From: Paraburkholderia edwinii
GTDB lineage: Bacteria; Pseudomonadota; Gammaproteobacteria; Burkholderiales; Burkholderiaceae
Length of the DNA stretch: 64,000 nucleotides
Reading direction: 5' to 3'
Assembly: GCF_019428685.1 (NCBI RefSeq)
Contig: NZ_CP080095.1
Span: 1,116,001-1,180,000, forward strand
The notes under the pieces are model-generated. The model was not told where the DNA came from. It was given only the letters and a program-made list of their open reading frames with translations, and did not search any database. Shown here piece after piece: positions 21,970 through 35,647 of the stretch (position 1 is its first letter; each line of letters starts with the position of its first letter). The translations under genes were made by a program, and so were the position numbers.

Positions 21970-24183
21970 ATGAAGATCAAGAAGAACGGGGCCTGTGTGT
22001 CAGCACTCGTTGCGTTGTTGCTCGCAACTCGTTCGATTGGCGCGCTGGCCGATGAGTGGAAAGAAGGTTCGACCTACACCGCCGGCACCACGGTCACGTA
22101 CAACGGCCACTCCTATCAGGCGCTGCAGACGCATACGGCGTACACCGGCGCAGGCTGGACGCCGCCCAGCTCGCCGACGTTGTGGCGCGATCTGGGCGCG
22201 AGCGGTGGTACGCCGTCACCATCGCCGTCGCCAGCACCGTCGCCAGCACCTGCACCCGCACCTGCACCTGCACCGTCACCTGCGCCATCACCGACGCCAT
22301 CACCGACGCCCTCGGGCGCGGGGTGCTACGCCGCGTGGTCAGCGACGCAAGCCTATGCCAATGCGGGTTCGCTCGTGACGTACAACGGACACAACTACAA
22401 GAACAAGTGGTGGACGCAAGGCGACAATCCTGCGCAGTCCGGCAGTTGGGGCGTATGGCAGGATCTGGGCGCATGTGCGGGCGGTCCGTCGCCAGCACCC
22501 GCGCCGACACCGGCACCAACACCGACGCCGACACCGACACCAACGCCGACACCAACACCAACACCAACACCGACGCCAGCACCGACGCCAGCACCGACGC
22601 CGACGCCGACGCCGACGCCAACGCCAACGCCAACGCCAACGCCAACGCCGACGCCAACGCCGACGCCGACGCCGACGCCGACGCCGACGCCAACGCCAAC
22701 GCCGACACCGACACCGACACCGACACCGACACCGACACCGACACCGACACCGACACCGACACCGACACCGACACCGACACCGACACCGACACCGACGCCA
22801 TCGCCATCGCCATCGCCATCGCCATCGGACGGCGGCGGAGGAGGTTCATCCTCGTCGAGCGCGCACGAGGTAGGCGGCTACTTCGCGCAATGGGGCATCT
22901 ACGACCGCAACTTCAAGGTGAAGGACATCGACACCTCCGGTCAGGCCAAGCAGTTGACCTTCATCAACTACGCGTTCGGCAACCTCTATGCGAAGAATGG
23001 CGGCTATGAATGCGGCATCGTCAACAAGGCCGAGCCCGGCGCGACCAATCCGAACGCGCCGGACGCAGGCACCGGCGGGGACGCATGGGCCGACTATCAG
23101 AAGGGCTTCTCGGCCAACGAAGCCGTCAACGGGACATCGGACCCGTGGCAATACGCGTGGGACGATCCGCGCAACGGCAAGGCCGGTCCGCTCAAAGGCA
23201 ACTTCAATCAGCTGAAGCAGCTGAAAGTGAAGTACCCGAACCTGAAGATCATGATTTCGATCGGTGGCTGGACCTGGTCGAAGTGGTTCGCGCGCGCGGC
23301 GGCGACCGACGCGGGCCGCAAGCAACTGGTGTCGTCGTGCATCGACGTGTATATCAAAGGCAATCTGCCGTTCGACGCGGGTTCGAATGCCGGCGGAGAC
23401 GGCGTTGCGGACGGCGTGTTCGACGGCATCGATATCGATTGGGAGTTTCCAGGTGGGGGCGGCCAACCTTATAACATCGTTGACCAGAACGATAAGCAAA
23501 ACTACACGCTGCTGCTCGCAGAGTTCCGCAAGCAGCTCGATGCGATCGGCGCACAAAAGGGCAAGCGATATCTGTTGACCGTAGCCATCGGCTCGGGTGG
23601 AGACAAGATCGCCAATACAGATCCCGCCCAATACAGCAAATCGCTCGACTGGATCAACGTCATGTCCTACGACTTCCATGGCGGATGGGAGTCGGCCGGC
23701 CCCACTGATTTTCAGTCGAATCTGTACAAAGATCCGGACAGTCCGAATGTGAAGACCGAGAACGGTGCGACCTATAACGTCGATGCCGCGATCAGAGGTC
23801 TGCTCGACAAAGGTGTGCCGCCTTCGAAGATCGTCGTCGGCATTCCGTTCTACGGCCGCGGGTGGACCGGCGTGACCGGCGGCCCGAAAGGCGACGGTCT
23901 CTACCAGAAGGCCACGAAGCCGGCGCCCGGCAAGTACGAAGAAGGCATACAGGATTACCGGATATTGAAGAGCGCGCCCGGCACCGTGTACGAGCATCCG
24001 GTCGCGAAACAATCGTGGAAGTTCGACGGCACGACGTTCTGGTCTTACGACACGCCCACGACGGTACGCACCAAAGTCGATTACGCGAAACGGCAGAACC
24101 TCAGGGGCGTTTTCTCGTGGGAGCTCGACGGCGACACACCCGATGCGGAGCTGACGAAAATCCTCGGTGAAGCGAACAAGTGA
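21970..24183 (+). CDS. Secreted GH18 chitinase with two CBM5/12 modules and Pro-Thr linker
   Basis: A 737-aa secreted endochitinase-type enzyme. Residues 1-27 are a Sec signal peptide (cut after GALA). A CBM5/12-like chitin-binding module follows at 28-76 ([17 protein letters not shown]), then a Pro-rich linker, a second Trp-rich module at 118-170 ([20 protein letters not shown]) and a Pro-Thr linker of about 115 residues. The GH18 barrel covers about 298-737. Its active site is DGIDIDWE, with Asp485, Asp488, Asp490 and the proton donor Glu492. The linker DNA is a hexanucleotide repeat. The next gene encodes a type II secretion pseudopilin, so this is a likely substrate of that machine. Confidence 0.95.
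22486..22830 (+). repeat. Hexanucleotide repeat tract encoding the GH18 Pro-Thr linker
   Basis: The linker DNA is almost wholly built of 6-bp units coding Thr-Pro or Ala-Pro. The block at about 22706-22795 is a pure ACACCG run of roughly 15 units. Gains or losses of whole units keep the frame, so length can vary between strains without breaking the enzyme. Confidence 0.9.
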
Positions 24184-24184
24184 T

Positions 24185-24673
24185 ATGCGCTTACATTGGA
24201 AAAGCAAGCGGGCTGTCATTGCGCCGATATCCGACACCGCATCGTTGCATCCGCAACGATCTCCAGGCCGCTGGCGAGGTTTCACCTTGCTCGAACTGCT
24301 CGTGGTGTTGCTCATCATCGCGCTGCTGGCGGGCTATGTCGGTCCGAAGCTGTTCGGCGAAGTCGGCAAGGCGCGCAGCAAAACCGCAGCGTCGCAGATG
24401 AAGGGGATTGAAAGCGCGCTCGATCGCTACCGTCTCGACACGGGGCACTATCCGCCGAGTGACGTCGGCCTGGCGGCATTGATGACGAACCAGGGCAGCA
24501 CGCCAGGCTGGGAAGGTCCGTACATGACCAGTGCGATTCCGAACGATCCATGGGGCAAGCCCTATATCTATCGGGTGCCTGGAGAAAACGGAAAGGACTA
24601 CGACCTCTTCACTTATGGCGCAGATGGCAAGCCGGGTGGAACGGGCGAGGATGCGGACATCTTTTCGAAGTAA
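24185..24673 (+). CDS. gspG: GspG-type major pseudopilin
   Basis: A 162-aa prepilin. The cleavage site RG|FTLLELLVVLLII has Gly32 at -1, Phe33 at +1 and Glu37 at +5, and the C-terminal part has the GspG calcium-region pattern (GWEGPYM, NDPWGKPY, DLFTYGADGKPGG). The 32-residue leader is unusually long. The ATG at 24185 directly follows the chitinase stop; an in-frame ATG at 24167 inside the chitinase gene is also possible. It is the first gene of the secretion operon and forms the pseudopilus shaft after processing by a prepilin peptidase encoded elsewhere. Confidence 0.92.
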   Translation: MRLHWKSKRAVIAPISDTASLHPQRSPGRWRGFTLLELLVVLLIIALLAGYVGPKLFGEVGKARSKTAASQMKGIESALDRYRLDTGHYPPSDVGLAALMTNQGSTPGWEGPYMTSAIPNDPWGKPYIYRVPGENGKDYDLFTYGADGKPGGTGEDADIFSK

Positions 24674-33474: not shown

Positions 33475-33595
33475 GGGTGGTGAGTTGGAGAGTGGGGTTG
33501 GGTCGGAGCGTGCGGTTTGTCGTTGAGATCTGCGATGCCGGCGGGGCGCGTGATGGTCGAGCGTACAGGATGGATCGCGATTGAGCGGAGGCGAT

Positions 33596-35647
33596 ATGAA
33601 GTCATATGTTGATAAAAGGTTCGCTTTGATGCCGGCTGTGATGGCGCTCTATGCCGTCGCTGGTTATGCACAACAGGCGTGGCAGGAAGGTGCGACCTAT
33701 ACCGCGGGCACGACGGTGACCTATAACGGACGCTTGTATCAGGCGCTGCAAACGCATACGGCGTATCCGGGCGCGGGTTGGACGCCGTCGGCTTCGCCGA
33801 CGTTGTGGCGAGATGTGGGGGCGGCTGGGGGGACGCCGACACCAACGCCAACGCCAACGCCAACGCCAACGCCAACGCCAACGCCAACGCCAACGCCAAC
33901 GCCAACGCCAACGCCAACGCCAACGCCAACGCCAACGCCAGCGCCAACGCCAACGCCAGCGCCAGCGCCAACGCCAACGCCAACGCCAACGCCAGCACCT
34001 GCACCAACTCCAGCGGCCGGAGGGTGCTACGCCACATGGTCGGCCACTCAGGCATATGCAACGCCGGGGACCAAGGTGACTTACAACGGACACAACTACA
34101 AAAACAAGTGGTGGACGCAAGGCGACAACCCCGCACAGTCGGGCGCCTGGGGCGTTTGGGAAGACTTGGGCGCGTGCTCCGGTGGCTCGACACCGACGCC
34201 GGCACCAACACCAGCGCCGACGCCGACACCGACACCGACACCGACACCGACGCCAACACCGACGCCAACACCGACGCCAACACCGACGCCAACACCGACG
34301 CCAACACCGACGCCAACACCGACGCCAACGCCAACGCCAACGCCAACGCCAACGCCAACGCCAGCCCCCACCCCCGCGGCCTACAAGCCAAAGATCACCT
34401 ACATCCCCGAACCTGCCGGCTATCCCACCACCGCGGACTTCAGCAAAGCGGAAAGCGCGTTAGTCGCTCAATCGCAGGGTCGCATCGAGATCATGCGCGA
34501 CGCTCTGCGCGTGTTGCCCGATTCCGATGTCGACGCCGTCGTGCCGGGGCGCGCCGCCAATCCGTCGAACGTGAAGCGGGTCGAGTCGATTATCAGCGAG
34601 CAGAAGTTCAACGAACTGTTTCCGGTGCGGAACATCGCGTATTCCTATGTGAACTTCCTGCGCGGCATCGCGAAGTTCCCCGCGTATTGCGGCGACTATA
34701 AGGACGGGCGCGACGCGAATGCGATCTGTCGCAAGCTGCTCGCGACGTCGTTTGCGCATTTCGTTCAGGAGACCGGTGCAAACTGGCCATCGCTAACGCC
34801 GGCGCAGGCCCGGTCCGGGTATCCGGATCACAACAATCCGGTGCTCGCGACGATGCCGCAGGACGCGGCGATCCCGTTCTGGAAACAGGCGCTCTGGTTC
34901 CTGCGCGAATCGGGCTACGAGGAGGGCTCTTCGGTCGGCGCATATCAGCAATGCGCGCCAGGTTCGCATGCGACGAACTGGATCTTCTATCCGTGCGCGA
35001 AGAACAGCAAGGGGCAATATCTCGACTACTTCGGACGCGGCGCGAAGCAGTTGTCGTGGAACTATAACTTCGGTCCTTTTTCGCAGGCGCTCTACGGCGA
35101 TCCGAACGTGCTGCTCGACAATCCCGGCCGCGTCGCCGATACCTGGCTCAATTTCGCCTCCGCCGTGTGGTTCGCCGTCACGCCGCAGACGCCGAAACCG
35201 CCGATGACATGGGTCATCGACGGCACGTGGAAACCCAATAACGTCGATCTGGCCAACAACATGAAGCCGGGCTTTGGCGCGACTATCTACATCATCAATG
35301 GCGGTATCGAATGCGGCGGTGGAGGGGCCGAGCGAGCGCAGGTGCAGAACCGTATCGCGGCCTACAAGGAAACGGCGCGCGAACTCAATGTAACGATTCC
35401 GTCCGACGAGCCGCTCGGATGCGCGAATATGCGCGGTTTCGCGGAAGGTTCCGCCGCCGCGACGCAGGCGTATCTGGACAAGGATTACTCATGGGCGAAC
35501 GGCAAACCGGTGACCGGATGCAAACTCGTCGATTACCAGATGCCGTTTTCGCTGATCACGCCGGGAGACTACAAGGCATGCACCGACTATTTCTTTAGAG
35601 GCAAGGTCGAGTACAACGGTCAGACCGTGATCGACAACACGAAGTGA
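33596..35647 (+). CDS. Secreted GH19 chitinase with two CBM5/12 modules and Pro-Thr linkers
   Basis: A 683-aa secreted enzyme. A signal peptide (cut after AGYA, about residue 25) is followed by a CBM5/12-like module ([18 protein letters not shown]), a Pro-Thr linker to about 142, a second Trp-rich module at 143-196 ([20 protein letters not shown]), a second linker to about 261 and a GH19 lysozyme-fold domain. The general acid is Glu392 in [10 protein letters not shown], and [15 protein letters not shown] is the conserved substrate-cleft segment. The two binding modules are nearly identical to those of the GH18 enzyme at 21970. GGAGG upstream of 33596 supports the start. It closes the secretion block. 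Confidence 0.93.
33844..33940 (+). repeat. AACGCC hexanucleotide tract encoding the first GH19 linker
   Basis: About 16 tandem AACGCC units code Thr-Pro repeats (ACG-CCA). The unit differs from the ACACCG unit used by the GH18 linker although the peptide is the same. Confidence 0.9.
34226..34366 (+). repeat. 6/12-bp repeat tract encoding the second GH19 linker
   Basis: The tract opens with a few ACACCG units, continues with about six copies of the 12-mer ACGCCAACACCG, and closes with AACGCC units. All encode Thr-Pro. Confidence 0.85.

What the first reader, a model, noticed from the sequence alone, without database searches (positions are those of the whole stretch)
21970..35647. Chitinase-bracketed T2SS/type IV pilus hybrid, a candidate dedicated export system
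An eleven-gene colinear operon (gspG, gspF, gspE, unknown, pilN-, pilO-, pilP-like, lipoprotein secretin, three pseudopilins) lies exactly between two chitinases of unrelated catalytic families that share the same CBM pair. Inner-membrane parts look PilN/O/P-like, pseudopilins look GspG-like, and the secretin is a lipoprotein with a TPR-like N-terminus. There is no GspC/L/M/K set and no peptidase. This suggests a separate machine specialised for chitin degradation.
Basis: partly seen in the sequence, partly recalled or inferred. Interest (0 to 1): 0.85.

Follow-up and report, generated by a model that had tools for sequence, protein, structure and literature searches.

The report
Chitin-linked atypical type II secretion system
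A soil-type bacterium's chitin-cutting enzymes sit on both sides of an unusual protein-export machine of their own, and nearly all closely related machines in other bacteria also lie beside chitin-degrading enzymes, so this branch of a little-studied machine family seems devoted to that cargo.

Summary
In detail: eleven colinear secretion genes (24185-33474) lie between a GH18 and a GH19 chitinase, each with two CBM5/12 modules. The genome's only GH18 and all four of its CBM5/12 modules are here. ATPase, platform and secretin fall below every curated equivalog cut-off and form a clade apart from canonical T2SS, T4aP and MSHA. That clade includes Geobacteraceae loci, which I identify by inference with the published Pul/OxpG atypical T2SS. 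The 'unknown' gene is a GspL/PilM-like actin fold. Loci were chosen blind to cargo: in a tree of 116, 46 of 49 rows of one clade have GH18, GH19 or LPMO genes near the operon, 0 of 67 outside. In 48 genomes, 43 of 58 strong GH18 genes lie at the operon. A second family member in this genome adjoins a GH64 beta-1,3-glucanase. Best reading: a T2SS lineage dedicated to chitin-active cargo, in an accessory block beside tRNA-Lys. Export is not shown; two canonical T2SSs are present, and in Mycetohabitans a canonical T2SS secretes chitinase. New variant of a known kind.

The parts
20654..21514 (-). 2OG-Fe(II) oxygenase (PF13640), recurrent neighbour, role unknown
   Evidence: 4.3e-15; homologue in 15 of 117 loci, all in the window's GH18/GH19 lineage
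21970..24183 (+). GH18 chitinase, signal peptide by eye, 2x CBM5/12, Pro/Thr linkers
   Evidence: GH18 5.1e-78, CBM5/12 1.1e-25; only GH18 of the genome
24185..24673 (+). major pseudopilin GspG
   Evidence: TIGR01710 150.7 bits, cut-off 88.85
24697..25881 (+). GspF-like platform
   Evidence: PF00482 4.7e-47; 265.3 bits, below GspF cut-off 424
25886..27574 (+). GspE/PilB-like assembly ATPase
   Evidence: PF00437 6.1e-121; 458.3 bits, below GspE cut-off 630.25
27597..28430 (+). 'unknown' gene: GspL-cytoplasmic/PilM-like actin fold
28427..29017 (+). PilN-like protein
   Evidence: profile A3 against PDB: PilN 3jc8 3.6e-5
29014..29526 (+). PilO/GspM-like protein
   Evidence: profile A4 against PDB: PilO 3jc8 3.6e-12
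29526..30134 (+). PilP/GspC-like protein, Pro-rich, C-terminal beta domain
   Evidence: best fold matches GspC HR 3oss_C E 0.12 and 6hcg_e E 0.24: weak
30131..31978 (+). lipoprotein secretin with TPR-like N-terminus
   Evidence: PF00263 1.2e-35, TPR 0.0059; below GspD, PilQ and MshL cut-offs; lipobox LAAC by eye
31996..32463 (+). minor pseudopilin 1, family marker used for the searches
   Evidence: PF07963 8.1e-8; alignment A1
32469..32846 (+). minor pseudopilin 2
   Evidence: PF07963 6.2e-7, PF08334 0.0003
32821..33474 (+). minor pseudopilin 3 without Glu at +5; start inferred; Gly-rich run in the leader
   Evidence: no Pfam match; orthologues 40-64% identical in ten loci
33596..35647 (+). 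GH19 chitinase, signal peptide by eye, 2x CBM5/12
   Evidence: GH19 1.8e-28, CBM5/12 4.3e-24
35682..36692 (-). SLT lytic transglycosylase, recurrent neighbour
   Evidence: 4.1e-27; homologue in 27 of 117 loci, 8 of them outside the window's lineage
37002..37077 (-). tRNA-Lys(ttt) at the right border of the accessory block
   Evidence: similarity of four non-carrier genomes stops at 37000

Best explanation
The operon encodes a complete atypical type II secretion machine of the Pul/OxpG kind. A GspG endopilus is driven by the GspE-like ATPase and GspF-like platform, aligned by a split GspL (actin-fold protein plus PilN-like), a PilO/GspM-like and a PilP/GspC-like protein, under a lipoprotein secretin that may reach the outer membrane through its own lipid and TPR part. 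Its lineage is specialised for chitin-active cargo: the flanking GH18 and GH19 enzymes cross the inner membrane by Sec, fold in the periplasm and are pushed out here. The genome's PilD processes the prepilins. SHOWN: gene content, folds, clade, conserved cargo linkage. INFERRED: assembly, PilD use, piloting, export itself and its specificity.
For: Component set. The family is one group apart from the T2SS, T4aP and MSHA rows (ATPase support 100; secretin 99, platform 93). Chitin-active genes in 46 of 49 rows of one 100-supported clade and 0 of 67 outside; 4 label changes, shuffled mean 36.4. Loci were chosen by similarity of the GspL/PilM-like protein or of pseudopilin 1, not by cargo. Cargo families differ between sublineages while the apparent substrate stays chitin. 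43 of 58 GH18 genes of 100 bits or more in 48 genomes lie at the operon; in 31 of 45 GH18-bearing genomes all of them do. The second family member of this genome adjoins a GH64 beta-1,3-glucanase. GH18-gspG spacing is 1 bp.
Against: No secretion data. Two canonical T2SSs are in the genome. In Mycetohabitans (Burkholderia) rhizoxinica, chitinase is undetectable in the secretome of a canonical gspD mutant and reduced in a gspC mutant (PMC4166002, passages). Three rows of the chitin clade show no chitin enzyme in the stretch seen (L030, L171, L228). 15 of 58 GH18 genes lie elsewhere. Rows of one clade are not independent, and co-localisation may reflect co-regulation or inheritance. Many members outside the clade show no clear cargo.
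Confidence: 0.65

Rival explanations
1. The chitinases leave through one of the two canonical T2SSs. The operon serves another substrate and is beside chitinases because both are used on chitin.
For: Two canonical T2SSs present; a canonical T2SS secretes chitinase in a related genus (PMC4166002, passages).
Against: No other candidate cargo was recognised in the block. The cargo class is kept while cargo families and outer neighbours change. Other lineages of the family lie beside other secreted enzymes.
Confidence: 0.2
2. The machine builds a surface pilus used to hold on to chitin, and the neighbouring enzymes use another exit.
For: PilN-, PilO- and PilP-like parts; best PDB relative of the secretin is a PilQ (6w6m, 1.5e-26).
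Against: The major subunit passes the GspG cut-off, the only assembly-type ATPase at the locus is the GspE-like one with no retraction ATPase beside it, and other lineages adjoin secreted enzymes.
Confidence: 0.08
3. The machine is a general, promiscuous exporter with chitinases as one cargo among many.
For: Canonical T2SSs export many substrates (recalled); 15 of 58 GH18 genes of these genomes lie away from the operon.
Against: Two canonical T2SSs already present; 46 of 49 against 0 of 67.
Confidence: 0.07

Closest known systems
Geobacteraceae Pul/OxpG/TklG atypical T2SS (secretes OmpB; Mehta et al. 2006, as cited in PMC3543383, passages)
   Same: Geobacteraceae-type loci L048, L052, L056 fall in the same ATPase and secretin groups and share the order gspF-gspE-...-secretin-pseudopilins; by eye they have FtsE/FtsX/EnvC-like genes next door, as the paper says of pul and cell division
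   Different: about 30-55% identity per gene; no chitin enzymes; no direct comparison with the G. sulfurreducens genes was made
canonical T2SS (Gsp/Xcp/Out)
   Same: GspG, pseudopilins, GspE/F/D homologues, GspL- and GspC-like folds
   Different: E, F and D below the curated cut-offs, GspL split, other clade
type IVa pilus and MSHA
   Same: PilM/N/O/P-like inner set; secretin nearest to PilQ in PDB
   Different: GspG-type major subunit; PilB, PilQ and MshL cut-offs not reached; other clades

Membership tests
canonical T2SS | GspE, GspF and GspD above NCBIfam equivalog cut-offs | tested here: not met
   458.3 of 630.25; 265.3 of 424; 162.8 of 351.35. Positive control, own copy L244: 750.5, 574, 670.6
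canonical T2SS | GspG major pseudopilin | tested here: met
   150.7 bits, cut-off 88.85
canonical T2SS | one-piece GspL | tested here: not met
   actin-fold protein and PilN-like protein are separate genes; no GspL family match. Control L244 GspL 363.4 bits, cut-off 65
canonical T2SS | ATPase inside the T2SS clade | tested here: not met
type IVa pilus | PilB and PilQ above cut-offs and inside the T4aP clade | tested here: not met
   434.3 of 675.65; 152 of 284.35; ATPase tree
MSHA pilus | MshL above cut-off and inside the MSHA clade | tested here: not met
   101.3 of 250.2; trees
Pul/OxpG-type atypical T2SS | common clade of ATPase and secretin | tested here: met
   with Geobacteraceae-type loci L048, L052, L056; that these are the published pul/oxp genes is inferred
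Pul/OxpG-type atypical T2SS | direct orthology to G. sulfurreducens PulG, OxpG, TklG | not tested
   those sequences were not fetched
Pul/OxpG-type atypical T2SS | secretes a folded exoenzyme | not testable with these tools
   needs mutants

The most novel reading that the evidence does not exclude
The Pul/OxpG-type family is a set of cargo-dedicated type II secretion machines, each lineage inherited with its own class of secreted enzyme: chitinases and LPMOs here, GH64 beta-1,3-glucanase in the second machine of the same cell. Such a bacterium would carry two private exporters for the two main fungal wall polymers, besides two general ones.
Probability: 0.5. Interest if true: 0.83.

Novelty: new variant of a known kind. 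Interest (0 to 1): 0.68.

Why it matters
How a T2SS picks its substrates is a long-standing open question. Here paralogous machines in one cell lie beside different enzyme classes that are conserved within each lineage, so specificity can be tested by removing one machine at a time and comparing secretomes. The linked set would also mark bacteria equipped to attack chitin.

Tried and rejected
Hybrid pieced together from two systems: rejected, since ATPase, platform and secretin all place the operon in one family. MSHA relative, suggested by gene order: not supported by trees or cut-offs. Shared CBM5/12 as a universal export tag: not supported, as several cargo GH18s of the clade show none with a profile made from the window's modules. 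An att-like repeat of the tRNA end within the window: no exact repeat of 16 bases or more found. LPMO in the window's genome: none. Profiles A2 and A5 gave no convincing PDB sequence match.

Limits. Of the pseudopilin-1 matches listed, all 44 of 239.8 bits or more besides the window were fetched, but only 46 of 117 weaker ones (hand count). L031 and L189 were dropped from the concatenated tree for too few columns; neither showed chitin cargo. Loci are about 20 kb, some cut by contig ends; the named loci mostly show 2.4 kb or less upstream of gspG, so cargo there can be missed. The profiles for GH18, GH19, LPMO and GH64 were built from these same loci. The ATPase, secretin and platform trees hold 34, 31 and 30 family rows chosen by me; the T2SS and T4aP labels are mine from context (only L244 and L245 were checked against NCBIfam). 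In the secretin tree the T2SS rows are not one group (L269 stands apart). Seven MshL-positive loci (L261-L266, L268) had no ATPase match in the stretch and are not in the ATPase tree. The concatenated tree is FastTree with long branches; single-gene trees are 'quick' IQ-TREE, with long-branch warnings. Gene calling in the flanks was crude. Cargo names outside the chitin clade rest on Pfam scans of 20 chosen proteins. That the LPMOs act on chitin is inferred from their CBM5/12 and GbpA_2 domains.

Print. Searches listed no paper that I recognised as describing a chitinase- or glucanase-linked atypical T2SS. Of papers, only listings and find-passages were seen; most subscription papers are not held.
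Full report
WHAT IS THERE. The window is G000:C1:1116001-1180000 of an 8.3-Mb, two-contig genome. The genus is probably Paraburkholderia: contigs of two genomes of the same genus group have exactly the lengths of named Paraburkholderia records (2,342,401 and 2,380,791 bases). Between a GH18 (21970-24183) and a GH19 chitinase (33596-35647), each with two CBM5/12 modules, run eleven colinear genes. The gspG ATG lies 1 bp after the GH18 stop.

FAMILY. The GspL/PilM-like protein matched 11 of 150 genomes of the family, own included. 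A profile of pseudopilin 1 (A1) matched 47 of 144 genomes of the genus and 105 of 398 of the family. In the ATPase tree the family (34 rows) is one group with support 100, apart from T2SS (9), MSHA (9) and T4aP (5). The secretin (99) and platform (93) trees agree on the family. Geobacteraceae-type loci L048, L052 and L056 lie inside, with FtsE/FtsX/EnvC-like neighbours by eye. [quoted passage not shown] I infer that this is the same kind; no direct comparison was made.

CARGO LINK. I fetched all 44 pseudopilin matches of 239.8 bits or more besides the window, 46 of 117 weaker ones, and the 27 named loci. GH18, GH19, LPMO and GH64 were sought with profiles built from the loci. Of ten proteins scanned, seven are LPMO_10+GbpA_2; the other three are a GH18, a DsbC-like and a transglutaminase-like protein. 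In the concatenated tree of 116 rows, 46 of 49 rows of one 100-supported clade have chitin-active genes near the operon; the three without are L030 (1.6 kb seen upstream), L171 and L228. None of the 67 rows outside has one. Sublineages differ: GH18 before and GH19 after (window, L020-L024, L155, L156, L159-L163, L165, L166, L169, L183-L185); LPMO upstream with a divergent, oppositely oriented GH18 (for example L175); LPMO alone (L026, whose genome has a GH18 28 kb away, L170, L173, L215); a long GH18 directly upstream (L029, L187, L188, L224). In 48 genomes of the clade, 43 of 58 GH18 genes of 100 bits or more lie within 16 kb of pseudopilin 1; in 31 of the 45 genomes with such a gene all of them do. 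In the window's genome the single GH18 and all four CBM5/12 are here, and there is no LPMO.

SISTER MACHINES. The genome has a second member on C2 (pseudopilin at 2429677) directly beside a GH64 beta-1,3-glucanase with F5/8 type C domains (L190). GH64 was found in 13 of 116 rows, all inside one 25-row clade. Proteins with F5/8 domains, some with a GH2-type C-terminal domain and cut by the locus end, lie upstream in further loci of that clade. Elsewhere the neighbours include GH2 (L216, L217, L219), subtilases (L033, L042), PhoX (L040), a multicopper oxidase (L222) and transglutaminase-like proteins (L201, L229). Some members show no clear cargo.

MOBILITY. Right of the block lies tRNA-Lys (37002-37077), then tol-pal. 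In four of four non-carrier genomes of the genus that I compared, similarity to the window stops at 37000; carrier G228 is collinear through it. tolB is in 25 of 25 sampled genomes of the genus, the dehydrogenase left of the block (19770-20654) in 7 of 25, own included. So the block is accessory and borders a tRNA. GC is close to the surroundings (0.618 against 0.631), and no att-like repeat was found.

MECHANISM AND DOUBT. Most likely a cargo-dedicated T2SS: Sec export, folding, endopilus-driven extrusion through the lipoprotein secretin, PilD supplied from elsewhere, and perhaps the recurrent SLT transglycosylase (27 of 117 loci) to open the wall. Only content, folds, phylogeny and linkage are shown. 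Against it stand two canonical T2SSs in the genome and the published secretion of chitinase by a canonical T2SS in Mycetohabitans (PMC4166002, passages). In B. vietnamiensis a canonical T2SS is likewise needed for an extracellular lipase activity (PMC13101487, passages). Denise et al. 2019 (PMC6668835, passages) describe T2SS outliers in Bacteroidetes and Chlamydia; the passages seen do not mention this family.

VERDICT. New variant of a known kind: a chitin-linked lineage of what I take to be the Pul/OxpG-type atypical T2SS.

Noticed in passing
window 20654-21514: A 2OG-Fe(II) oxygenase recurs in 15 of 117 loci, all of the window's GH18/GH19 lineage; one guess is prolyl hydroxylation of the Pro-rich linkers of the chitinases.
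   Followed up: partly
window 35682-36692: An SLT transglycosylase recurs in 27 of 117 loci, 8 of them outside the window's lineage, so it may be a further component of the machine.
   Followed up: partly
L190 (G000:C2:2422200-2442100): Second operon of the family in the same genome, beside a GH64 beta-1,3-glucanase with F5/8 type C domains.
   Followed up: yes
window 32821-33034: Pseudopilin 3 of this genome has a Gly-rich run in its leader that orthologues such as L023 and L024 lack.
   Followed up: no
window 22094-22849 and 33444-34391: Repeats coding the Pro/Thr linkers of both chitinases open long spurious ORFs on the other strand.
   Followed up: no
window 37002-37077: tRNA-Lys at the edge of a site whose other side differs in all four non-carrier genomes compared.
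   Followed up: partly
L286 3621-12978: Carrier G228 has about 9 kb more DNA left of its oxygenase gene, with a 1406-aa ORF and a resolvase-like ORF (names by eye).
   Followed up: no
L261-L266, L268: Seven secretins above the MshL cut-off without an assembly ATPase match in the stretch fetched; they form their own group.
   Followed up: no
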